A stretch of DNA of 64,000 bases from Brachyspira pilosicoli. GTDB lineage: Bacteria; Spirochaetota; Brachyspiria; Brachyspirales; Brachyspiraceae. How positions within the stretch are numbered: position 1 is the first letter of the stretch; every line of letters begins with the position of its first letter. Below, piece by piece: positions 24,532 to 35,607 of this stretch. The notes beneath the pieces were generated by a model. That model had not been told where the DNA came from. It saw only the letters and a list, made by a program, of their open reading frames with translations, and searched no databases. The translations under genes were made by a program, and so were the position numbers. The stretch covers positions 434,001-498,000 of the forward strand of contig NZ_JAWLPU010000002.1 in the NCBI RefSeq assembly GCF_036997485.1, in the 5' to 3' direction.

Positions 24532-27500
24532 CTATATTTTATCTTGTTGTTCTTTCAATAAAAATTTAATAGCTTCTTTATCTTTATCCAAAATATTTCT
24601 ATATGGATTAAATGAACTTTCATTATTCAAAGTAATATTTTTATAAAGTATATTACATATTGGTAATCTTAGGAAATTTGGAATATCATTATCATTTCTC
24701 AATATATTACTATCATCTTTATTTACACATTCTATTAAAACTCTAAATTCATTCTCAAATTTGAATGCATCATTCTTTATAAAAAAGTCATATATATGTT
24801 GATTAACATTTTTAGGATCCTTTAATTTATCATATAGTATGTTTCCAAAATAATAAATATAATTATCATCTTTAATCTTTAAAATATTTTTTATTAAATC
24901 TTTTTTATTAACTAATATTCTAACCTTTATATTATCAACATCATCACTATAACTCGTACCATATATCTTCCAGTTAGCATACGAATTTTCAGAATCTACT
25001 GTATTACTAAAACAACACATGTAAACTTTTTCATCTAATGAATACATATTCTCATTATTATCTTCAAAATTATATGGATGAGATATTGTTAATCGTTTTT
25101 CTTTAATATCTTTTATAAGATATTTAAAATATAATATTCTAGAGATGTTACATCCATTATCAACAATTAAATAATCAACTAATGTAGTTATATCATTAAT
25201 TTCAATAAGTTTACTATCGGTTTTTAAATCATACACACAATATGTATTATTTTCTATAATAACTTTGACAGGAGGAAACAAATTTATAGTATCTAATTTT
25301 TTTATATCATTAAATAAATCATGTTCTTTAATAAAATTTCCTATCGTAGAATATTTAATATATCTATCTTCAATCTTATTAAAACATATTTTTAATAAAT
25401 AAAGTTTTGATAATTTCTTTTCTATATTATTAAATATATCAGTATCCTCTTCCATACTAATATAAATTTTTATAATACTGCATAAAATTGTAGCATATAT
25501 TTCAGTATTATAAATAATATTAACATTATCTATATTTTCAAAAAGCAAAAATAATAGTCCATTCTTTGTACAAGAAGATTTACTAAAAAACTTATTAAAA
25601 TCTATTATTTCATCAAATCTTTCTTCAATGATTCCCATATATTCTAAATAATAATAATTATTATAAAGCTTAATATTTCCTCTATAATAATAATATGGAA
25701 TTTTTAATAAATTTAACAATATATTTTCATGATAATTTATATCAATATCTTTAAAAATATTATCAAAATTATAAAACAAATAATATAAATAACTATTATC
25801 ATTTACACCTATTAAACAATTATGCAAATCTTTAATATTATCTTCAAAATCAACTTCAAAATATTTTTTTATTTTTATTTTTTCTTCGTCTGTAAAAATT
25901 ACTTTATCTCTAATATCTGATATGTACTGCATATAATTATAAAGATGTATTCCCCAATGTTTATCCCAATAAGTTTCTATATACTTTTTTATTTCATTCA
26001 TATCTATTGTTTTTAAGAATATTTTACTTATTATTAATGAATAATAAATTATAAATGGATTAATAATTACTATTTCTTTATCTAAATATTCATTTTTATT
26101 TTTATATTTATTATATTCTTGATTATATAAAGCTAAATCCTTATATGTTGGTATTTCACCTAAACATTTAATTATATCATCTATATCACTAATTAGTTTA
26201 TCTTTAAAGAAAAAACTATGCACACAAGAGAATCTTTTTTCTTCATATAAAGATTTTTCTTTCTCTATTTTTTCTCTATATTCTTTATCAATACTTTTTT
26301 CCTTTTTTATATTTTCTGGAATATATTGATAAAGCTCATCTGTTTCTTTTATTATATTCCAAGCAAAATAATTTTGCATTATTTTTGTAAAATTATTAAA
26401 ATCATCAGCAGTGATATTTAAACTTAATAATAAATCTCTGTAATTATCTGTAAGATATATATCAGGCATTTCATTATTACCTTTGCAGAAAGATAAAAAA
26501 TATTTTTGTAAGATATCAATATAACAACTTAAATCTATTTCTATATCATCATATATTTTTATTTTGATTTCATTATTTTTAAAATTAGCTATTAAATAAA
26601 TCATAAATACAGGATACTGTTCATCAGATAAACAATTAACTAAATTTTTGTTTTTACTTAAGCAATAAATAGGAATATCTAAATTATATATTTTTATACC
26701 ATATCTTATATTATTAAATAATTCCTTAAGTTCTTTACTGTCATTTATAAAAAATATATCCAAAACATTTTTTAATTTTTCTTTAAAATCTGAAATAACA
26801 TCTATTATAGATAATATTATTTTAATATTATTATTTAATATTAATGGATGCATATCTTTTTTATTTAGTATTCTGCTTGATATTTCAAAATAATATTTTA
26901 TAAAATTATCATATACTATGTCTAATTTAATATATTCATCTTCCAAATATAATAATAAATTGCCAAGCATATTATATTGCCTATATTCTGTACCCAATTT
27001 TTTGATCAAAGGCATAATAATATTTATACTATTATTATCCAATTTATTAGTATAAAGTTTTATTATGATAATAAATGATATTAATTTTATATAATAAAAA
27101 TAATTCTTATTGTCAATACTACTTATACTTTTTTCAATATAAGTCAAATATTTATCAAAATACATATTATTGATTTTTTCATAATCTTCATCTATAAATA
27201 TAGACATATCCAATAATAAATATATATTTCTTATTTCGCTTTCTCTCAAATTATTAATTTTATTTTCTATTATATCTTTGCAATAATCTTTAATTGTAAA
27301 AAATATTTTTATATCATTTAGTTTTATTATTTCATTTTCATAATAGTTTCCAACAGATAATGCAATTAATATATTTTCTTCATCTAAGTATTTATCAAAT
27401 AGATAATCAAATAATTTTTTCTTATCATCATCATTAATATTCTTTAATATTTCACTGTCTTCTTTAATGTCTATTAAATCGTAATAAAAATTAAGTATAT

Positions 27501-27540
27501 TATCAAAACTATTTATATAATCATCTAAAATTTTATTCAT
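24532..27540 (-). CDS. Large DUF2971-like C-terminal domain protein
   Basis: A 1002-aa protein, extremely rich in Ile, Asn, Lys and Asp, with no signal peptide. Residues 1-800 are mostly helical repeats without a recognised family. The C-terminus has features like DUF2971: HPYNFEDNNE at about 821-830, CCFSNTVDSE at 842, NWKIYG at 857-861 and FENEFRVLIEC at 928-938. That order (N/D-P-x-E, CFS, W/Y-YG, E-E-R) is shared with the TPR protein at 59403. A clear GGGAG lies 7 nt before ATG. Base use is even more AT-rich than its neighbours. It lies next to the PadR and Gabija genes and may belong to a defence block; that is inference. Confidence 0.6.
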   Translation of the reverse strand: MNKILDDYINSFDNILNFYYDLIDIKEDSEILKNINDDDKKKLFDYLFDKYLDEENILIALSVGNYYENEIIKLNDIKIFFTIKDYCKDIIENKINNLRESEIRNIYLLLDMSIFIDEDYEKINNMYFDKYLTYIEKSISSIDNKNYFYYIKLISFIIIIKLYTNKLDNNSINIIMPLIKKLGTEYRQYNMLGNLLLYLEDEYIKLDIVYDNFIKYYFEISSRILNKKDMHPLILNNNIKIILSIIDVISDFKEKLKNVLDIFFINDSKELKELFNNIRYGIKIYNLDIPIYCLSKNKNLVNCLSDEQYPVFMIYLIANFKNNEIKIKIYDDIEIDLSCYIDILQKYFLSFCKGNNEMPDIYLTDNYRDLLLSLNITADDFNNFTKIMQNYFAWNIIKETDELYQYIPENIKKEKSIDKEYREKIEKEKSLYEEKRFSCVHSFFFKDKLISDIDDIIKCLGEIPTYKDLALYNQEYNKYKNKNEYLDKEIVIINPFIIYYSLIISKIFLKTIDMNEIKKYIETYWDKHWGIHLYNYMQYISDIRDKVIFTDEEKIKIKKYFEVDFEDNIKDLHNCLIGVNDNSYLYYLFYNFDNIFKDIDINYHENILLNLLKIPYYYYRGNIKLYNNYYYLEYMGIIEERFDEIIDFNKFFSKSSCTKNGLLFLLFENIDNVNIIYNTEIYATILCSIIKIYISMEEDTDIFNNIEKKLSKLYLLKICFNKIEDRYIKYSTIGNFIKEHDLFNDIKKLDTINLFPPVKVIIENNTYCVYDLKTDSKLIEINDITTLVDYLIVDNGCNISRILYFKYLIKDIKEKRLTISHPYNFEDNNENMYSLDEKVYMCCFSNTVDSENSYANWKIYGTSYSDDVDNIKVRILVNKKDLIKNILKIKDDNYIYYFGNILYDKLKDPKNVNQHIYDFFIKNDAFKFENEFRVLIECVNKDDSNILRNDNDIPNFLRLPICNILYKNITLNNESSFNPYRNILDKDKEAIKFLLKEQQDKI

Positions 27541-27654
27541 AAAAATACTCCCAATTAATTTATGTTATAATAATATAAAAAATACAGATAAAAAAACAAT
27601 ATATAGTTCATATTTATATAATTTTTTATAAAAAAAATACCATATAAAAGAAAC

Positions 27655-27686
27655 AAAAAAGGATAGCTAGTAAACACCAGCTACCC
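27655..27686 (-). terminator. Rho-independent terminator of the padR/HAAS operon
   Basis: Read on the minus strand, GGGTAGCT (27686-27679) and AGCTATCC (27668-27661) pair with one G-U, followed by six T. It closes the operon that ends at 27746. The 27541-27745 gap has nothing else of note. Confidence 0.85.
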
Positions 27687-27745
27687 TATTATATCTTACT
27701 ATTTTTATTTAGCTTGTAATACAATATTTATTGCTTATATTAAAT

Positions 27746-28705
27746 TTAAAAGTTCCTCTTAAATTTTAATATTTTATCAATACTGTCTAAAATCAATGCT
27801 AATAATATCATAAAAAAACAAAACATTTGAAAATTATTAAATATAGATAAAATTAAATTATTACTTACATTTTTTATCAAAGAATCAATAAATACTTCAT
27901 TTATTAAATTATAATTAAAAAACCATATAAAAGAAATAACAGCAGAAAATATATTAATAGCTATAAATAATATTGTGTTTCTAATATTATAACTATTATC
28001 AACTATTTTTATTATCTCTCTAAATATTAATAAAACAATAAAAAATACAGCAAATAAATATGATGATTTTACAATATCAGTATTAAATAAATTTATAAAC
28101 TTCCCATCTATATTAAAGCTAAATATATTTGGAGATAAAATAAATAAACTTAAAAATATTACAGCAAATAATATTGATAATAAAGAAAAATATTTATTTG
28201 TTTTTATATTATTATTTGGAAGTTTTGGTAATTTATCAATATCATCATTAAAAAAATTAATATTAAACTTATACATAAAAATAAATATTAAAGTAACAAA
28301 AGAAAAAGATAATATAGCAGCAAATATTATATCACTAATAAATTTTGATACAGTTTGATTTTCAATATTAATGATATGAGACAATATTATTCCAAAAATA
28401 GTAGATATTAAAACAATCTTTAATATATCTTTATAATAATTATAATAAGGCTGACCTATTAGGCACTTGTCTGAAGAATTATCATATTTTTGATAAAGTT
28501 TATTAGGGCTTCCTAATTCCATTAAAACAATTTTTGCATCTTTTAAAGTTACTTCTTTATCATTATATCTTTCCTCTATTGTATCATAAATTAATGTCTT
28601 TAATTCATCAGCAACATCATTTCTAATTTTTAAAGACATTTTATTTGTAACAGCATAAATATATCTTTCTATTAAATCATTTACATCTTTACTAAGTTCT
28701 TTCAT
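27746..28705 (-). CDS. HAAS-domain membrane protein paired with PadR
   Basis: A 319-aa membrane protein. The N-terminal 85 residues fit the HAAS signalling domain (ELSKDVNDLIERYIYAVTNK, KDAKIVLMELGSPNKLYQKY), common next to PadR regulators. The rest is about eight hydrophobic helices. Genes of this type and PadR form a sensor/regulator pair in many bacteria. It lies 27 bp after padR on the same transcript and ends at the terminator at 27655. What it senses is unknown. Confidence 0.78.
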   Translation of the reverse strand: MKELSKDVNDLIERYIYAVTNKMSLKIRNDVADELKTLIYDTIEERYNDKEVTLKDAKIVLMELGSPNKLYQKYDNSSDKCLIGQPYYNYYKDILKIVLISTIFGIILSHIINIENQTVSKFISDIIFAAILSFSFVTLIFIFMYKFNINFFNDDIDKLPKLPNNNIKTNKYFSLLSILFAVIFLSLFILSPNIFSFNIDGKFINLFNTDIVKSSYLFAVFFIVLLIFREIIKIVDNSYNIRNTILFIAINIFSAVISFIWFFNYNLINEVFIDSLIKNVSNNLILSIFNNFQMFCFFMILLALILDSIDKILKFKRNF

Positions 28706-28732
28706 AATTTTTCCTTTAATTTTTTAATTTAA

Positions 28733-29065
28733 TTATTTTTCAAGAATTTTATTTACAGCATTAGAATACTCTTTCCAATGTTCTTTAGATTTTTCTAATA
28801 CTTTCAAACCATTTTTTGTTATTAAGTAATATTTTCTTGGTTTTTCTTCGTTTGTTTTCCATTCACTTTTTAAAAGCCCCTGATTTTCTAATCTTCTTAA
28901 AAGCGGATATAAAGTATTAGACTCTATTGTTATGCCATTTTCTTTTAATTTACTTATTAAGCTGTAGCCATATTCTTCATTTTTAAGCTGACTTAATACA
29001 ACCATTATTAAAGTTCCCCTCCTTAATTCTTGCACCAAAATAGAAATTAAATCATCATTATTCAA
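28733..29065 (-). CDS. PadR-family transcriptional regulator
   Basis: A 110-aa winged-helix repressor of the PadR family. Landmarks: RRGTLIMVVLSQLKNEEYGY, SNTLYPLLRRLENQGLLKSEW, PRKYYLITKNGLKVL. The start is TTG 29065, since AGGAG lies 6 nt before it; the ATGs just downstream are in another frame. It is followed by the HAAS membrane protein. A near-perfect 9-3-9 inverted repeat sits on its promoter, which fits autoregulation. Confidence 0.9.
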   Translation of the reverse strand: MNNDDLISILVQELRRGTLIMVVLSQLKNEEYGYSLISKLKENGITIESNTLYPLLRRLENQGLLKSEWKTNEEKPRKYYLITKNGLKVLEKSKEHWKEYSNAVNKILEK

Positions 29066-29092
29066 GCACTGCTCCTTATTATTTATTACGCT

Positions 29093-29140
29093 ATAGTGTG
29101 TTATACACAGTATAGTACATCATATATGTAAAATTGTCAA
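29093..29140 (-). promoter_or_regulatory. padR promoter with likely operator
   Basis: On the minus strand: TTGACA (29140-29135), 17 bp, TACTAT (29117-29112). The inverted repeat ATAGTGTGT (29093-29101) and ACACAGTAT (29105-29113), one mismatch, covers the -10 and start site. A repressor bound there would block transcription. Confidence 0.55.
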
Positions 29141-29262
29141 GTGAAAAGATAATTATTTTTTAATATTTGAATAGAATAATGATTATTATCAAGACAATCC
29201 AGTACAAATAATCAACTATATGTGCGGCTGATTAAGAAATATCAAACAAAAAAATAAATTAG

Positions 29263-29296
29263 TTGCTTAATATGAAATATAAATTATACTATAAGT
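29263..29296 (+). promoter_or_regulatory. gajA promoter with -10 box 6 nt before ATG
   Basis: TTGCTT 29263-29268, 16 bp, TATACT 29285-29290, then 6 nt to ATG 29297. There is no Shine-Dalgarno. This fits a leaderless mRNA. Confidence 0.5.
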
Positions 29297-31186
29297 ATGT
29301 ATATAAGAGAATTAATTATAACAAATTATAAAAATATAAAAAATGTAAAAATTGATTTACAACATAAATATTCTATGATTTACCTAACAGGTGAAAATGG
29401 AATAGGAAAATCAAATATCATAGACATAATATTTAAATTATTTACATACAAAAAAAATTTATTTGAAAAAGAAGACTTCTATAAAAATGAAGAAAAAATT
29501 GAAATAGAAATAAAACTTGAATTAAATACTGATGAAATATTTAAAGATTATATTTATAGAGATGATAATAAGTATTTTATGAAAGTAGTATATAAACAAT
29601 ATAGTAGTAATGATGAATATGAATGGTTTTATAAAAATCTTACAGAAGAATATAAGTTACATAATAATATATTAACCAATTTTATCTGCTATAAATATAG
29701 TCCAAGAGAATTTGATAATAATTTCATGTTTAACAAATCAAATAGAATAGGAAAATTTATATCAAAAATAATAGAAAATCAAATAAAAAAATATCAAAAT
29801 GATAATAACGAATTAAAAAAATTATTAAAAAAAAAATATAAAAATTGTAAAAATGAACTAAATGAAATATTTAAACCTATATTTAATAAACCAAATCAAG
29901 AATTAAAATTAAATATTGAAATTGATGATGAAATAAAGTTTTTATTAAAATTATTTGAATTAGTACATTATCATAATGATGATAATAAATTATATTTAAA
30001 TCAATTAGGAAGAGGAAGAGGATATTATCTATATCCATTTATAGATTTTTTGGCATTTTTATACGATAAAATAAATAATACAAAATCTCAAGGTTTTAAT
30101 ACTAATATTATTATTTTATTTGATGAACCAGAAGTATTTTTATCTCCATTTTTACAGCGTCAATTTATGGATCATTGGTTATCAATATTTAATGACAATC
30201 AAAACTATAAAATTATCAATAATATTCTTAATATAATAACTGATGATAATGATGAAATAGACTATAAAATTACTCCGATATTTTTTGTATCTACACATTC
30301 AGCACATATAATACCGCATTTAGAATTAAATGAAAAAGAGAATATATTATCTATACAAAGACTTTATTATGATAAAGAAAATACTGTTAAAATTGCATCT
30401 CTTGATAAAAAAGATAAATTAAAACAGTTTATAATTTTTGATAGAAATATATTAGAGGGACTTTTTGCTAAAAAAATTATACTGGTAGAGGGTGATACAG
30501 AAGTTGGATTTTTACCTTCTTGTTTAAATGCTAATGGTATTAATATTCATCAAGAACATATATATATTATTAAAGCGGCACCAAATAATTTTCCAAGTCT
30601 AGCAAAAATATTCTCAAAATTGCAAATAAAAACATATATACTTACAGATAGAGATTGTAAAAATAAAGAGATAAAAGAGCAAAGAAATAACAAAATATAC
30701 CAAACATATGCAAATGAAGAATATGGATATGTTAATAAAAGGGTTTATGATTTATACGAAAGTATAAAAAATTGTAATAATGTAAAAATATTTGTGTCAG
30801 ATTATTGGGATTTTGAGGAAAGTATTTTAGTATGTCTAAAAAATCATTTTCAAAAAATATATATTAGCATTAGTAAAAGTAAAAGTAAAACTAATGATAA
30901 AGATAAACTTATTGAAAAAGTACAAGATGAAAATTCAAAAGATGAAGAATTTACTAAAAAGTTATTATATATGAGAAAAAAACATAAAAATATAAAAGAT
31001 AATTACAGATTAATAAAAAAAATAATAAAAGAAAATTTAAAACTAAAACAAAATGAATATAAAAACGGAGAAAAAATAGATTGTGGTAATATGAACAATG
31101 AAGCTATCAAAAATGTTGCTGAGGAAAATTATAAACTTCCTAAATATATAATTGATTTAATAGAAGAATTAAAAAATGATAAATAA
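29297..31186 (+). CDS. gajA: Gabija-type OLD nuclease (GajA-like)
   Basis: A 629-aa OLD-family protein: an ABC-type ATPase domain fused to a TOPRIM nuclease. Walker A is GENGIGKS (32-39) and Walker B is ILFDEPEVFLSP (near 275). The TOPRIM part starts IILVEGDTEVGF (near 398), with the D-x-D in YILTDRDCKNKE near 450. In the Gabija system GajA is the DNA-cutting, nucleotide-sensing part of an anti-phage complex. It is followed by a UvrD-like helicase that overlaps by 11 bp, which is the gajAB arrangement. The length is somewhat above the ~580 of the best known member. A plain OLD nuclease is the alternative, but the helicase partner argues for Gabija. Confidence 0.82.
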   Translation: MYIRELIITNYKNIKNVKIDLQHKYSMIYLTGENGIGKSNIIDIIFKLFTYKKNLFEKEDFYKNEEKIEIEIKLELNTDEIFKDYIYRDDNKYFMKVVYKQYSSNDEYEWFYKNLTEEYKLHNNILTNFICYKYSPREFDNNFMFNKSNRIGKFISKIIENQIKKYQNDNNELKKLLKKKYKNCKNELNEIFKPIFNKPNQELKLNIEIDDEIKFLLKLFELVHYHNDDNKLYLNQLGRGRGYYLYPFIDFLAFLYDKINNTKSQGFNTNIIILFDEPEVFLSPFLQRQFMDHWLSIFNDNQNYKIINNILNIITDDNDEIDYKITPIFFVSTHSAHIIPHLELNEKENILSIQRLYYDKENTVKIASLDKKDKLKQFIIFDRNILEGLFAKKIILVEGDTEVGFLPSCLNANGINIHQEHIYIIKAAPNNFPSLAKIFSKLQIKTYILTDRDCKNKEIKEQRNNKIYQTYANEEYGYVNKRVYDLYESIKNCNNVKIFVSDYWDFEESILVCLKNHFQKIYISISKSKSKTNDKDKLIEKVQDENSKDEEFTKKLLYMRKKHKNIKDNYRLIKKIIKENLKLKQNEYKNGEKIDCGNMNNEAIKNVAEENYKLPKYIIDLIEELKNDK

Positions 31187-32783
31187 TGATAAAATTAATA
31201 AAATATTAGAAAAACACAAAGATGATAAAGAACAGTTAGACTTTATAAAATCTACAGAACAATCTCTTACAATTGCTCCTGCTGGATATGGTAAAACAGA
31301 AATGTTAATCTCAAAACTTAACTATATCATAGAAAGTGAACAAATTAAATATCCAAAAAGAATTCTAGTTTTAACATTATCTAATGTGGCAAAACATACT
31401 ATTGAAAGTAGATTAAATAATAATCAATTTGTAGACATATATAATTTTCATAATTTAGCAAGTAGAATTTTAAGGCTTCAAGGTAAACAATATTTAAATA
31501 TTGATTATCAATATGAATATAAACACTATAATTTTAAAGATAAACTTCAAGAAAAGTATAAAAATGATAAAATAGAAAAAATACTAAATTATTATAGAGA
31601 AAAAATTAGTGAAATTAATAAAAAATTTCATGAAATAAAATTTGATGATAAAATATTTCAATATGTAGATACTATAAATAAAAATAAAGAAATATGCTAT
31701 GAATATGTAATATATTTTGCAATAGTTCTATTAAATAATTTCAATATAAATGAAATATATAAAAATTTATACAGTTATATTTTTGTAGATGAATGTCAAG
31801 ATATAAATTTATTGCACTTTATCTTATTAAGAAGTATTGCTGATAATGAATATAATAAAATATTTTTTTTAGGAGATACATTTCAATCTATAATGAAATT
31901 TGCTGATGCTTTAGGAGAACAAATTGAATATTTATTAAAGCAACATTTTAATATAACTAAAATTATAAAATTACAAAAAAATTATAGATTAGAAGGAAGA
32001 GAAAATATATCTAATTTCCAAAAAAATATTAGAAATTACGATAAAAAATTACAAATAGAACTTGATGAAGATTTTCAAATAAAAAGTTTTAATTACTTTG
32101 AAGAAGAGATATCATTTATTAATAATCAAATTAATAAAATTATTTCTGAAAATAAAAAAGCTAAAATAGCAATACTTTTTTCTAATCAATTTTATTTTAA
32201 TGATGATAAAATCTTAAACTCATTATTTGAAAATTTAATAAAAGAAAATATAGAATATATAAATATATTAAAAACCGAAAAAGAATTAAATACAATAATG
32301 AAAAATGTATTCAATATAGCAACAAATATAAAAATATTAAATTATAATAATCTTCTTAAGAAGATAAAAAATTATTATGATAATGATATATCAAAATTAA
32401 TAGAAGGTTATAAAAACTATTGTTTAAAGTTTGGAATAGATTTTAATACAATAATAGAAGTTCTAAAAGAAAAAGATTTAATAAAGTATGCTCCTTATTG
32501 CTCTGTAAATGTAAATATATTAAATATACATAAAGCAAAAGGGGCAGAATGGGATTATGTTTTTATTCCATTTTTAAATAAAAAACAATTCATATATAAA
32601 AAAAATTGTAATAAATGTAATAATATATGTTACAATCATATAATTGATATAAATGAAGAATTTTATCAAGCTTTTTATGTAGCAATTACTAGAACAAAAT
32701 ATGGTTTATATATAACATCAACAAAAAATAACGCTTCTTGTTTATTTTATCATTCATTAAAATTAATTAAGAATATTTATTAA
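31176..32783 (+). CDS. gajB: Gabija-type UvrD-like helicase (GajB-like)
   Basis: A 535-aa superfamily-1 helicase. Walker A is APAGYGKTE (34-42), motif II is YIFVDECQD (near 203) with a following FLGDTFQSI, motif V is LNIHKAKGAEWDYVFIP and motif VI is AFYVAITRTK. Between V and VI there is a CxxCxxxCxxH cluster (KNCNKCNNICYNH, near 477-489), like a small zinc site. It starts inside gajA (11-bp overlap), with no ribosome site of its own, so it depends on gajA translation. It is shorter than UvrD or Rep, as known for GajB. Confidence 0.82.
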   Translation: MINNDKINKILEKHKDDKEQLDFIKSTEQSLTIAPAGYGKTEMLISKLNYIIESEQIKYPKRILVLTLSNVAKHTIESRLNNNQFVDIYNFHNLASRILRLQGKQYLNIDYQYEYKHYNFKDKLQEKYKNDKIEKILNYYREKISEINKKFHEIKFDDKIFQYVDTINKNKEICYEYVIYFAIVLLNNFNINEIYKNLYSYIFVDECQDINLLHFILLRSIADNEYNKIFFLGDTFQSIMKFADALGEQIEYLLKQHFNITKIIKLQKNYRLEGRENISNFQKNIRNYDKKLQIELDEDFQIKSFNYFEEEISFINNQINKIISENKKAKIAILFSNQFYFNDDKILNSLFENLIKENIEYINILKTEKELNTIMKNVFNIATNIKILNYNNLLKKIKNYYDNDISKLIEGYKNYCLKFGIDFNTIIEVLKEKDLIKYAPYCSVNVNILNIHKAKGAEWDYVFIPFLNKKQFIYKKNCNKCNNICYNHIIDINEEFYQAFYVAITRTKYGLYITSTKNNASCLFYHSLKLIKNIY

Positions 32784-32816
32784 ACAAAAAAAGGACAGCC
32801 ATTACAGCCGCCCTTT
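32784..32816 (-). terminator. Rho-independent terminator of ileS
   Basis: On the minus strand AAAGGGCGGC (32816-32807) pairs with GCTGTCCTTT (32799-32790) with G-U pairs and a 7-nt loop, followed by a run of T. On the plus strand the same stem would have mismatches, so it serves ileS and not gajB. Confidence 0.75.
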
Positions 32817-32841
32817 ATAATATTTAAATATTAATTATTTT

Positions 32842-35607
32842 TTATTTTACTGCCTCAGCACATCTAGTACATAACTCTTTATGCTCAGTTCCTACACTGT
32901 CATAATGTCCCCAACAGCGTACGCATTTTTCATGACTAGCTTTCTCTGTCTTAACAAAAGAAACTCCGCCCTCTATAAATGTATCGTCTTTGCTGTCAGA
33001 AAGTGTTACTTTACTTACAATAAATATCTCGTTTAAATATTTTTCATATTTAGTAAGTAATTCTTTAGTTGCTGGTTCTTTAGTGCATATTGTTACATAA
33101 GCCTCTAAAGATTTACCTATTGTGCTATTATCTCTAGCTCTTTCAAGTGATAATAATACATCATCGCGTACTTTAAGAATTGAAGCCCACTCATTTTCTA
33201 ACTCTAAATCAATTAAATTGTCATCAGCTTTAGGATATAATTCTAAATGTACAGAAGAAGCATTTTCTCCTTTGTAGTATCCCCAAACCTCATCAGTTGT
33301 GAAAGGAAGTACAGGAGCTATTAATTTTACTAATACATCTAATATCTCAACAAGCACAGTCTGAGCACTTCTTCTTGAAACAGAATCTTTTCTATCACAG
33401 TATAATCTGTCTTTTATAATGTCAAAATAAGTAGCAGAAAGTTCAACAACACAGTAATTTATAAGTCTTTGATAGAATAAATGGAACTCATAACCATCAC
33501 AAGCCTTATCAGCAACTTTTATAAAGCTATGAAGTCTTGATAAAGCATATCTGTCTACAGGAAGTAAATCTTTAACTTCAACCTTTTCTTTACTGTAATC
33601 AAAATCAGAAATATTTCCTAACAAATACCTGAAAGTGTTTCTTATTTTTCTGTAGTTGTCAGCAATAGCCTTCATCATGTTATCACCAACACGTGCATTA
33701 TGAGTGAAGTCTTCGCTTATACACCAAAGTCTTAATATGTCAGCACCATATTTGTCAATAACTTCTAAAGGTGAAACAACATTGCCGGCACTTTTATGCA
33801 TAGCTCTGCCCTGTTCGTCTAAAGTCCAACCATGAGTTACAAGCTCTTTGTATGGAGGTATTCCTCTTATAGCCATAGAAGGCCAAATTGCAGCTTGGAA
33901 CCAACCTCTGTATTGGTCGCCTCCCTCTAAATATATATCAACAGGGAAAACTCCGTCCAAATCTTTGTTAGTTTTCTGTGCAGCAAAAGATGATACGCCA
34001 GAATCAAACCAAACGTCCAAAATATCTTGCTCTTTATCAAAATCACAGCTTCCGCATTCGCATTTAGTGCCCTCAGGAAGTAAGTCTTTAGCCTCTAATT
34101 CAAACCAAACGTCCATTCCTTTAGTTTTTACTATTTCAGCAAAATGTCTTGTAGATTCTGCAGTAAGTAAAGTTTTTCCGCAATTCTTACAATAGAATGC
34201 AGGTATAGGAACACCCCAAGAACGCTGTCTTGATAAACACCAGTCAGGACGATTCTCAAGCATTTTTTTCATTCTGTCATGTCCCCAAGCTGGATACCAT
34301 TTAATATTATCTAAAGATTTAACTGTTCTTTCATCTATATTATCATGAGTCATATTCATAAACCACTGAGAAGTAGCTCTAAATATCAATGGATTTTTAC
34401 ATCTCCAACAAATAGGATAACTGTGAGTAACTTTCTCTTTATAATATAATGAACCATTATTTTCAAGTATCTCTACCACTTTAGGGTTAGCATCTCTTAC
34501 TTTCATTCCCTGCATTTCTGGAAACTCGCTTGTATATCTTCCAGCTTTATCAACTGGACAATATATATCAAGTCCGTAATTCATACCTGTCTGATAGTCT
34601 TCCATACCATGACCAGGAGCAGTATGAACAACACCAGTACCTGAAGTTGCCTCAACATAATCAGCAAATACAACAGCAGATTTTCTGTCTTTTATGAAAG
34701 GATGCGCTATTTCAAGTTTTTCAATCTCTTCCATAGATATAGGAATAATCTCTCTGCCCTCTGCTCTCATGTCTTTTTTAGATAGAACTGTATCAACTAA
34801 AGAAGTTGTCATTATTGCATATCTTCCGTCTATTTCAACAGCTACATACTCTAAATCTCTGTTGAAAGCACAAGCCATATTTGAAGGCAATGTCCAAGGA
34901 GTAGTAGTCCATATCATAACATCAACATTGCCGTTTAATTTATCATTAATTTTATTTAATACAGGAAATCTCACATAAACACTTGTAGAAGTATGGTTTT
35001 CATCATATTCTATCTCAGCAGCAGCCAATGCAGTTTCACACTCCATACACCAGTGAATAGTTCTAAGTCCTTTATATATGTAGCCTTTCTCTACTAAATG
35101 TGCAAATACTTCAACTATTTCTGATTCATATTCAGGAGACATAGTAAGATAAGGATTTTCCCAATCTCCCATTACACCAAGTCTTTTAAACTCTTTTCTT
35201 TGAATATCAATATATTTCTGAGCATAAGCACGGCATTTTTTTCTCATTATAAATTTAGAAGTTTCTTTATATTTATCTCCTAAACTCTCTTGTACTTTTA
35301 ACTCTATAGGCATACCATGACAATCCCAACCAGGAACATAAGGAGAATCAAAGCCCTTAGCAGATTTATATCTCACAATAATATCTTTAATAATTTTATT
35401 TAATGATGTTCCAATATGAATGTCTCCATTCGCATAAGGCGGTCCATCATGTAAAATACATTTAGGAGCACCTTTTCTTAATTCTCTAAGTTGTTGATAA
35501 AGTTTTTCTTCTTCCCATTTTTTTATTATTTTGGGCTCTTTTTCCTTCAAACCAGCTTTCATAGGAAAAGCAGTTTTAGGCAAATTGATAGTAGAACTAT
35601 AATCCAT
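32842..35607 (-). CDS. ileS: Isoleucyl-tRNA synthetase
   Basis: Charges tRNA-Ile. The 921-aa enzyme has the HIGH region (GPPYANGDIHIGTSLN), the editing domain (MIWTTTPWTLPSNMACAF) and the tRNA-binding WWS-like part (RSWGVPIPAFYC). The KMSKS loop here reads AMHKSAGN, an M-H-K-S variant. A C-terminal zinc finger (CVRCWGHYDS and CTRCAEA) closes the chain. Class I synthetase, cytoplasmic. An upstream gap of 615 bp holds a dispersed repeat. No T-box leader is visible. Confidence 0.97.
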   Translation of the reverse strand: MDYSSTINLPKTAFPMKAGLKEKEPKIIKKWEEEKLYQQLRELRKGAPKCILHDGPPYANGDIHIGTSLNKIIKDIIVRYKSAKGFDSPYVPGWDCHGMPIELKVQESLGDKYKETSKFIMRKKCRAYAQKYIDIQRKEFKRLGVMGDWENPYLTMSPEYESEIVEVFAHLVEKGYIYKGLRTIHWCMECETALAAAEIEYDENHTSTSVYVRFPVLNKINDKLNGNVDVMIWTTTPWTLPSNMACAFNRDLEYVAVEIDGRYAIMTTSLVDTVLSKKDMRAEGREIIPISMEEIEKLEIAHPFIKDRKSAVVFADYVEATSGTGVVHTAPGHGMEDYQTGMNYGLDIYCPVDKAGRYTSEFPEMQGMKVRDANPKVVEILENNGSLYYKEKVTHSYPICWRCKNPLIFRATSQWFMNMTHDNIDERTVKSLDNIKWYPAWGHDRMKKMLENRPDWCLSRQRSWGVPIPAFYCKNCGKTLLTAESTRHFAEIVKTKGMDVWFELEAKDLLPEGTKCECGSCDFDKEQDILDVWFDSGVSSFAAQKTNKDLDGVFPVDIYLEGGDQYRGWFQAAIWPSMAIRGIPPYKELVTHGWTLDEQGRAMHKSAGNVVSPLEVIDKYGADILRLWCISEDFTHNARVGDNMMKAIADNYRKIRNTFRYLLGNISDFDYSKEKVEVKDLLPVDRYALSRLHSFIKVADKACDGYEFHLFYQRLINYCVVELSATYFDIIKDRLYCDRKDSVSRRSAQTVLVEILDVLVKLIAPVLPFTTDEVWGYYKGENASSVHLELYPKADDNLIDLELENEWASILKVRDDVLLSLERARDNSTIGKSLEAYVTICTKEPATKELLTKYEKYLNEIFIVSKVTLSDSKDDTFIEGGVSFVKTEKASHEKCVRCWGHYDSVGTEHKELCTRCAEAVK

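What the first reader, a model, noticed from the sequence alone, without database searches (positions are those of the whole stretch)
29297..32783. Gabija-type anti-phage pair in an AT-rich accessory block
Seen: an OLD-type ATPase-TOPRIM nuclease and a short UvrD-like helicase overlap by 11 bp, the gajA-gajB order. All catalytic motifs appear intact. Known: Gabija degrades or nicks DNA when nucleotides are depleted during phage infection. The surrounding 24.5-32.8 kb block is even more A+T-rich than the rest, which fits acquired DNA.
Basis: partly seen in the sequence, partly recalled or inferred. Interest (0 to 1): 0.6.

Follow-up and report, generated by a model that had tools for sequence, protein, structure and literature searches.

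The report
Divergent Gabija pair in defence hotspot
Two overlapping genes encode an intact but distant form of Gabija, a known bacterial antivirus system; they sit in a swap-in slot beside a housekeeping gene, moved recently between species, and their helicase carries a four-cysteine site, probably metal-binding, that relatives of the tested Gabija lack.

Summary
In detail: gajA (29297-31186, 629 aa) and gajB (31176-32783, 535 aa) overlap by 11 bp, are intact, and their best PADLOC models are GajA (PDLC00085, 163.5 bits) and GajB (PDLC00107, 540.6 bits). ATPase, TOPRIM and helicase motif residues are present. Four things are added. (1) GajA falls outside the Bacillus cereus-type Gabija tested in the laboratory; the pair belongs to another clade. 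(2) In 31 of 41 GajB examined, this one included, four cysteines are conserved; 8 have none, 2 have three; 7 B. cereus-type GajB and 12 PcrA have none. This is very likely a metal site; my literature searches found no report. (3) The pair occupies a slot behind the ileS terminator. In 17 of 20 readable genomes of the genus a defence-type gene lies there. The slot is anchored on ileS, not mazG. (4) The cassette moved recently between species (gajA dS 0.07-0.11 against 0.42-0.44 for ileS), and gajB is mosaic. Anti-phage function and mechanism are inferred from B. cereus Gabija, not shown here.

The parts
29297..31186 (+). gajA: class 2 OLD-family protein, ABC-type ATPase domain plus TOPRIM nuclease domain, 629 aa
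   Evidence: PDLC00085 GajA 163.5 bits; AAA_15 and OLD-like_TOPRIM; AF2 model (44-row alignment) best in VIA-align to GajA 8x5i_D, Z 21.2 over 455 residues spanning 1-629
31176..32783 (+). gajB: short SF1A (UvrD-like) helicase, 535 aa, overlaps gajA by 11 bp
   Evidence: PDLC00107 GajB 540.6 bits; UvrD-helicase and UvrD_C; groups with GajA-paired helicases, not PcrA
30488..30988 (+). codons of the TOPRIM catalytic residues E398, E402, D451, D453, D505, E507, K564
   Evidence: E398, D451, D453 in 44 of 44 aligned GajA; E402 and K564 in 43 of 44; E507 in 41 of 44 (D in 3); column 505 is D in 19 of 44; E398, E402, D451, D453 align to BcGajA E379, E383, D432, D434; D505, E507, K564 matched to D511, D513, K541 by motif order, with BpOLD equivalents from PMC10822852 section 9
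32607..32741 (+). codons of GajB C478, C481, C485 (between helicase motifs V and VI) and C522 (after VI): predicted metal-binding site
   Evidence: all four in 31 of 41 GajB of the set, none in 8, three in 2; 0 of 7 B. cereus-type GajB and 0 of 12 PcrA
31506..31751 (+). gajB variable block 1 (residues 111-192; region of helicase domain 1B)
   Evidence: G000-G023 54% aa identity, pS 0.38, 13 gap positions; G000-G016 84%, pS 0.13
32178..32390 (+). gajB variable block 2 (residues 335-405)
   Evidence: G000-G016 37% aa identity, pS 0.39; G000-G023 90%, pS 0.12
32574..32675 (+). gajB variable block 3 (residues 467-500), which holds three of the four cysteines
   Evidence: G000-G016 55% aa identity, pS 0.45; G000-G023 97%, pS 0.00; the cysteines are kept in all three genomes
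29219..29296 (+). stretch upstream of gajA shared with G023, hence part of the cassette; presumed promoter
   Evidence: blastn G000-G023 homology runs from ileS to window 29219; no promoter stands out above chance
32790..32816 (-). terminator of ileS, convergent with gajB; boundary of the slot, followed in other genomes by other cassettes
   Evidence: 12-bp stem with T run, the only terminator-like site found in 28900-33000 (shuffle mean 0.3); similar stem-loops seen by eye behind ileS in most of the genomes printed
32842..35607 (-). ileS, the conserved anchor of the slot (not part of the system)
   Evidence: match in 22 of 26 genomes of the genus; gajAB is on its 3' side in G000, G016 and G023

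Best explanation
This is an intact two-gene Gabija-type anti-phage cassette of a clade (PADLOC PDLC00085/PDLC00107) separate from the laboratory-tested B. cereus type. Inferred mechanism: GajA forms an oligomeric ATPase-TOPRIM nuclease held inactive by cellular nucleotides. The GajB helicase binds it and, on DNA ends or structures met during phage replication, hydrolyses nucleotides. This frees the TOPRIM site (E398, E402, D451, D453, D505, E507, K564) to nick DNA by a two-metal mechanism, so that phage replication stops or the cell aborts the infection. GajB of this clade carries a predicted four-cysteine metal site beside motifs V and VI. Shown here: gene structure, family membership, intact motif residues, conserved cysteines, hotspot position, recent interspecies transfer and mosaic gajB. 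Inferred: complex formation, nicking, nucleotide control, metal binding and anti-phage activity.
For: GajA and GajB models are best by wide margins; against the same GajB model the best other genomes among 392 of the phylum score 307 bits (G132) and then at most 199, that is PcrA/UvrD level. 58 of 65 GajA relatives found in genome contigs have a UvrD-like ORF directly behind gajA; of the other 7, 3 end at the contig edge and 4 have a broken or short gajA frame. The same model pair is best in a Brevinema MAG at about 29% and 26% identity and in the three core members scanned. Catalytic residues are conserved. Fold match to GajA over the full length. The site is a defence hotspot. Horizontal movement: dS 0.07-0.11 for gajA and 0.10-0.17 for gajB between G000 and the two other carriers, against 0.42-0.44 (ileS) and above 1.1 (mazG).
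Against: No expression or phage data. GajA scores only 163.5 bits against a model that core members match at 526-692 bits, and it lies on a long branch. Profile search and Foldseek rank class 1 TsOLD slightly ahead of BcGajA, and for GajB rank UvrD/PcrA ahead of GajB. dN/dS of 0.34-0.58 would also fit relaxed constraint. B. cereus GajB is said to lack the Q motif (PMC10822852, section 8) while this one keeps Q20, so nucleotide use may differ.
Confidence: 0.85

Rival explanations
1. A class 2 OLD nuclease-helicase pair that works in DNA repair or plasmid exclusion and is called Gabija only by model breadth.
For: GajA is nearly equidistant from TsOLD and BcGajA and in a clade without a tested member known to me.
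Against: Patchy presence (3 of 26 genomes), position in a slot where other genomes carry known defence systems, recent interspecies transfer. A housekeeping repair role would predict broad, vertical inheritance.
Confidence: 0.1
2. A Gabija relic or inhibited copy that is no longer active.
For: dN/dS of 0.34-0.58 and block divergence in gajB.
Against: Full-length frames in all three genomes, invariant catalytic residues, and cysteines kept even inside variable block 3.
Confidence: 0.05
3. A wider picture: the whole 24.5-32.8 kb stretch is one acquired element that includes the 1002-aa ORF, the membrane protein and PadR.
For: Continuous low G+C.
Against: PadR and membrane protein lie at the ileS slot without Gabija in G007 and G018; Gabija lies there without them in G016 and G023; the 1002-aa ORF has relatives only in G004 and G021 of 26 genomes, at places away from ileS.
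Confidence: 0.05

Closest known systems
Gabija of Bacillus cereus VD045 (GajA-GajB; PDB 8sm3, 8jqb, 8x5i; PMC10781630, PMC8136825, PMC10822852)
   Same: Gene order, OLD ATPase + TOPRIM protein followed by a short SF1A helicase; Walker and TOPRIM residues K35, E289, H320, E379, E383, D432, D434 align to identical residues and D511, D513, K541 have counterparts D505, E507, K564 by motif order; full-length fold match.
   Different: Separate clade in the GajA trees; best PADLOC models differ (PDLC00085/PDLC00107, against PDLC00081/PDLC00122 for a plasmid relative of the B. cereus type); GajB has four cysteines that are absent from 7 B. cereus-type GajB; GajA is 629 aa against 578 (chain 8jq9_B).
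Class 2 OLD nucleases (Xanthomonas and Burkholderia OLD, PDB 6njv, 6nk8)
   Same: TOPRIM active site; by published definition class 2 OLD are those beside a UvrD/PcrA/Rep-like helicase (PMC10781630), as here.
   Different: The solved chains that were hit are C-terminal domains of 230 residues; similarity is weak (E 0.005 and 0.05 with three rows; 3e-22 and 3e-20 with 44 rows).
TsOLD, class 1 OLD nuclease (PDB 6p74)
   Same: Same ATPase-TOPRIM fold; top Foldseek and profile hit.
   Different: Class 1 OLD are single proteins (PMC10781630); here a helicase gene overlaps the nuclease gene.
Bad, a bacterial DNA2-like helicase-nuclease with an Fe-S cluster (PMC7430649, start of abstract in a search listing)
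   Same: A helicase with four cysteines that are likely to hold an Fe-S cluster, as is possible here.
   Different: Its cysteines are assigned by analogy to DNA2 (abstract). GajB here has only helicase and P-loop domains in Pfam and its cysteines lie between motifs V and VI and after VI. Their place in Bad was not checked.

Membership tests
Gabija (GajAB) | GajA: OLD-type ABC ATPase fused to a TOPRIM nuclease | tested here: met
   Pfam AAA_15 and OLD-like_TOPRIM; GajA model 163.5 bits; full-length fold match to GajA
Gabija (GajAB) | Complete TOPRIM active site (BcGajA E379, E383, D432, D434, D511, D513, K541) | tested here: met
   E398, E402, D451, D453 by alignment; D505, E507, K564 by motif order and conservation, not confirmed by superposition. 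BcGajA G409 aligns to A428, in a column that is G in only 15 of 48.
Gabija (GajAB) | Adjacent UvrD-like SF1A helicase (GajB) with DEXQD box | tested here: met
   11-bp overlap; D205, E206, Q208, D209 in 39 of 39 aligned GajB; GajB model 540.6 bits
Gabija (GajAB) | Falls with the tested B. cereus-type members in GajA and GajB trees | tested here: inconclusive
   GajA lies in a 37-row group apart from BcGajA and TsOLD (95/99; SH-aLRT 100) but branches are long; B. cereus-type GajB were aligned but not put in the GajB tree
Gabija (GajAB) | 4:4 GajA-GajB complex, nucleotide-regulated DNA cleavage, anti-phage activity | not testable with these tools
   Needs biochemistry and phage assays; the complex was not modelled
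Housekeeping PcrA/UvrD helicase | Groups with PcrA/UvrD and has their length (660-775 aa in the 12 rows used) | tested here: not met
   535 aa; separate from 12 PcrA in the quick tree (SH-aLRT 99 for the GajB group); 82 bits against a cut-off of 1144 for TIGR01075
PARIS (AriA-AriB) | OLD-type ATPase with a separate TOPRIM protein | tested here: not met
   TOPRIM is fused to the ATPase; AriA model 79.7 bits over residues 1-339 only
Septu (PtuA-PtuB) | ATPase without TOPRIM, with an HNH partner | tested here: not met
   TOPRIM present and the neighbour is a helicase
Retron with OLD effector (Eco8 type) | Reverse transcriptase beside the OLD nuclease | tested here: not met
   No RT match among the five genes scanned at the locus (24532-32783); ncRNA not searched

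The most novel reading that the evidence does not exclude
A Gabija subtype whose helicase is a metalloprotein: four cysteines around motifs V and VI bind an Fe-S cluster or zinc, and this site couples DNA sensing by GajB to release of the GajA nuclease. Block exchange in GajB (the 1B region, which in B. cereus carries the GajB-GajB and GajA-GajB contacts, and parts of the C-terminal half) re-tools the surfaces that phage inhibitors or triggers touch, within a cassette that circulates through one fixed slot of the genus.
Probability: 0.3. Interest if true: 0.6.

Novelty: new variant of a known kind. Interest (0 to 1): 0.4.

Why it matters
Gabija is reported in more than 15% of sequenced genomes (PMC10781630 abstract), yet the structures and biochemistry I met are of one type, B. 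cereus VD045. A clade spread over Bacteroidota, Bacillota, Cyanobacteriota, Pseudomonadota, Spirochaetota and others, most of whose helicases carry an all-or-none four-cysteine site, suggests that GajB control is not the same in all Gabija. The question how GajB activates GajA, named as open in PMC10781630, becomes testable by mutating four residues. The ileS slot gives a simple place to look for further defence genes in this genus.

Tried and rejected
Rejected: housekeeping helicase; one acquired 24.5-32.8 kb block; a conserved mazG-ileS interval (on different contigs in G023, about 1 Mb apart in G016, about 100 kb apart in G007 and G018). Phage-borne copies: the viral-contig scan found none. 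The plasmid tblastn gave one weak GajA hit, Phaeobacter CP104102, itself an OLD-helicase pair.

Led nowhere: the first genome-contig scan with the single GajA; phmmer of GajA against the PDB, best hit an OLD C-terminal domain at E 0.03; Pfam at E 5 for the 1002-aa ORF; Pfam and PADLOC for several slot genes; promoter scan, 55 sites against 47.9 expected; a search of ileS in plasmid records to name the organism. An idea that loss of the Q motif separates the B. cereus type was dropped: of 7 B. cereus-type GajB, 5 have Q in that column. The GajB tree is discarded: 5 of its 12 PcrA rows were wrong-strand picks, corrected. blastn between AT-rich loci gave many spurious low-identity matches; only the long matches above 80% identity were used.

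Searches for print: Brachyspira + Gabija, 0 papers; Brachyspira + anti-phage + restriction-modification, 0 papers; (at least three of Brachyspira, defense systems, restriction-modification, hotspot), 191 papers, none of the 20 listed holding the word Brachyspira; Gabija + GajB + iron-sulfur, 1 paper, and Gabija + GajB + cysteine + zinc, 2 papers; the passages of PMC12839542 shown do not describe such a site in GajB, and PMC10689801 was not opened; (OLD nuclease, UvrD, cysteine, Fe-S; Gabija subtypes), listings only. Only open-licence PMC papers are searched. Papers seen: passages of PMC10781630, PMC8136825 and PMC12839542; abstract, two passages and sections 8 and 9 of PMC10822852; PMC7430649, start of abstract in a listing.
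Full report
WHAT IS THERE. gajA (29297-31186 +, 629 aa) and gajB (31176-32783 +, 535 aa) overlap by 11 bp. GajA matches AAA_15 and OLD-like_TOPRIM, GajB matches UvrD-helicase and UvrD_C. In PADLOC the best models are GajA PDLC00085 (163.5 bits, E 2e-48) and GajB PDLC00107 (540.6 bits, E 1e-162); the best non-Gabija models are Old (88.8) and RTasHel (125.3). NCBIfam gives only RecF/RecN and UvrD-type matches far below cut-off. As a yardstick for GajB, PDLC00107 was searched in 392 genomes of the phylum: 252 pass E 1e-40, but scores fall from 562, 540 and 500 bits (three genomes of this genus) to 307 (G132) and then to 199 and below, where the UvrD/PcrA-like proteins lie; 6 of 14 control genomes also ring at that loose limit. 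So a match alone proves little; the score gap does.

ORGANISM. Unnamed. G132, called same phylum, holds the contig that genome contigs lists as an uncultured Brevinema MAG, Spirochaetota.

ACTIVE SITES. Alignment with B. cereus GajA maps K35, E289, H320, E379, E383, D432 and D434 to window K38, E277, H334, E398, E402, D451 and D453; G409 maps to A428, in a column that is G in 15 of 48 rows. PMC10822852 (section 9) gives the full metal site as E379, E383, D432, D434, D511, D513, K541, aligned with BpOLD E400, E404, D455, D457, T506, E508, K562. D511 did not align reliably by sequence. By order and conservation its counterparts here are D505, E507 (E in 41 of 44, D in 3) and K564 (43 of 44). In PMC8136825, E379A, D511A and K541A abolished cleavage while K35A and H320A did not. 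GajB keeps Walker A K40, DECQD, Q237, R271, K455 and R506.

RELATIVES AND PAIRING. In 58 of 65 a UvrD-like ORF starts between 320 bp before and 8 bp after the gajA stop. The other seven are three contig ends (L137, L164, L170) and four with short or broken gajA frames (L146, L163, L167, L169). The profile used for the helicase would match any UvrD-like protein, so this shows pairing, not subtype. For the alignments I gave 43 of the 65 loci for GajA and 38 of 65 for GajB, plus the window (44 and 39 rows); near-duplicates, fragments and some odd-length rows were left out.

TREES. GajA: window in a 37-row group apart from an 11-row group with BcGajA and TsOLD (95/99). With seven plasmid pairs added (six fetched of the 24 records found with B. 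cereus GajA, and the Phaeobacter pair), the same split (SH-aLRT 100, quick tree). Branches to the window group and TsOLD are long and composition is skewed, so the exact place is unsure. GajB: window in a 36-row group of GajA-paired helicases (SH-aLRT 99), 12 PcrA outside (quick tree). B. cereus-type GajB were not in that tree.

FOLD. The AF2 model of GajA (44 rows) has mean pLDDT 75.7 and pTM 0.79. Foldseek: TsOLD 1.2e-20, then BcGajA 1.1e-18, Retron Eco8 OLD 2.5e-17. VIA-align: GajA 8x5i_D Z 21.2, rmsd 5.2, 455 residues, model range 1-629; PtuA Z 20.8 is a tie in Z but spans only 1-410. The AF2 model of GajB (39 rows) has pLDDT 78.7 and pTM 0.81; Foldseek ranks UvrD/PcrA first (4e-20) and GajB 8jqb 40th (3e-11). 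By fold GajB is thus a UvrD-type helicase of ordinary build, and its Gabija identity rests on models, tree and gene pairing.

FOUR CYSTEINES. In the 41 GajB examined (38 loci rows, the window, and the two other genomes of the genus), C478, C481, C485 and C522 are all present in 31, all absent in 8, and three present in 2 (L130, whose ORF ends early, and L142, where one is shifted). The 8 without are two archaeal rows, the Brevinema row, and five rows that lie outside the 36-row group. None of the 7 B. cereus-type GajB and none of the 12 PcrA has a cysteine at any of the four columns. In G016 the surrounding block is rewritten but the cysteines stay. An all-or-none pattern of four cysteines is the usual mark of a metal site; binding itself is inferred. 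B. cereus GajB itself was not aligned; the GajB beside the closest plasmid GajA (L187, 52% identical to BcGajA) stands in for it.

THE SLOT. Of 26 genomes of the genus, 22 have an ileS match at E 1e-100; in G001 and G005 the contig ends inside ileS, leaving 20 with a readable 3' side (3.4-13 kb read). First occupants: Gabija in G000, G016 and G023; DarT-DarG in G003 and the same gene clusters in G017; Hachiman in G011 and the same cluster, split in two ORFs, in G022; a PD-Lambda-5-type pair in G009; PDC-M11A in G004; a C5-methyltransferase with a weak REase match in G015; a type IIG restriction-modification gene directly in G013, G019 and G024; small ORF + PadR + membrane protein and then type IIG in G007 and G018; unknown genes and then type IIG in G012 and G025; ordinary genes in G006, G010 and G021. 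Only one member of each cluster was scanned; the rest are assigned by BLAST clustering. In sum 17 of 20 carry at least one defence-type gene. The window genome's own type IIG gene lies elsewhere (G000:C1:2058-4886, 69% identity). The ileS stop is followed in most genomes by a short stem-loop with a T run, and cassettes begin behind it (read by eye; a strict GGGCGGC text search marks only 6 of the 22 rows).

MOVEMENT AND MOSAIC. Between G000 and G016 or G023: gajA dS 0.072 and 0.108, gajB 0.172 and 0.104, ileS 0.418 and 0.444, mazG 1.38 and 1.15. The cassette is therefore younger than the split of the species. dN/dS is 0.34-0.58 for gajAB and 0.03-0.10 for ileS and mazG. Along gajB, blocks 111-192 (G023 different) and 335-405 and 467-500 (G016 different) have pS 0.38-0.45 in the diverged pairs, against 0.00-0.17 elsewhere. 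Raised synonymous divergence inside sharply bounded blocks points to exchange with unsampled alleles rather than to selection on amino acids alone. gajA is less affected, but residues 457-530 of G023 show pS 0.32. Block limits were chosen after looking, and there are only three alleles. In B. cereus the 1B domain of GajB carries GajB-GajB contacts (Y119, I122) and GajA contacts (V147, Q150) (PMC10781630); block 1 lies in the corresponding region by position along the protein, which is inference.

MECHANISM. PMC10822852 (abstract) proposes that nucleotides hold the complex inactive and that their depletion during phage replication and transcription frees it to cut circular DNA; [quoted passage not shown] I take the same scheme as the most likely for this pair, with unknown changes from the cysteine site and from the retained Q20 of the Q motif, which B. 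cereus GajB is said to lack.

VERDICT. The added interest is the four-cysteine GajB, the mosaic alleles and the ileS slot.

Noticed in passing
window 32790-32842 and the ileS 3' side of 20 genomes (loci L034, L035, L081-L097): Genus-wide defence hotspot behind ileS: 17 of 20 readable genomes carry at least one defence-type gene there, most often a type IIG restriction-modification gene.
   Followed up: partly
L086:856-3990 + (G011): HamA and HamB of Hachiman fused in one 1044-aa ORF (HamA 247 bits, HamB 568 bits); the same cluster is two overlapping ORFs of 321 and 723 aa in G022.
   Followed up: no
L120:1245-8049 (Brevinema MAG contig, also L151): Three-gene string: TmtA-like protein (PDLC03967, 334 bits), GajA (249 bits) and GajB (308 bits), nearly touching; its GajB lacks the four cysteines.
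   Followed up: partly
window 24532-27540 -: 1002-aa ORF without Pfam match (E up to 5), PADLOC or NCBIfam match; relatives only in G004 (41%) and G021 (33%, C-terminal part) of 26 genomes. The C-terminal part recalls DUF2971 (recalled, not tested).
   Followed up: partly
window 27746-29140 -: PadR regulator and a membrane protein that recalls DUF1700-type PadR partners (recalled); the near-palindrome TGTGTTATACACA at 29097-29109 lies beside a TTGACA-17-TACTAT promoter-like site on the - strand (29140-29112), perhaps the PadR operator.
   Followed up: no
L081:5631-7262 + (G007): Reverse transcriptase of the UG14 group (PDLC03751, 537.5 bits) directly behind the type IIG gene in the same slot.
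   Followed up: no
L093:5853-7844 + (G003): KAP-type NTPase with weak PDC-S49 match behind the type IIG gene.
   Followed up: no
L190:1-6088 (Acinetobacter pittii plasmid): A B. cereus-type OLD-helicase pair 17 bp behind a long DEAD/DEAH helicase gene, possibly a larger system.
   Followed up: no
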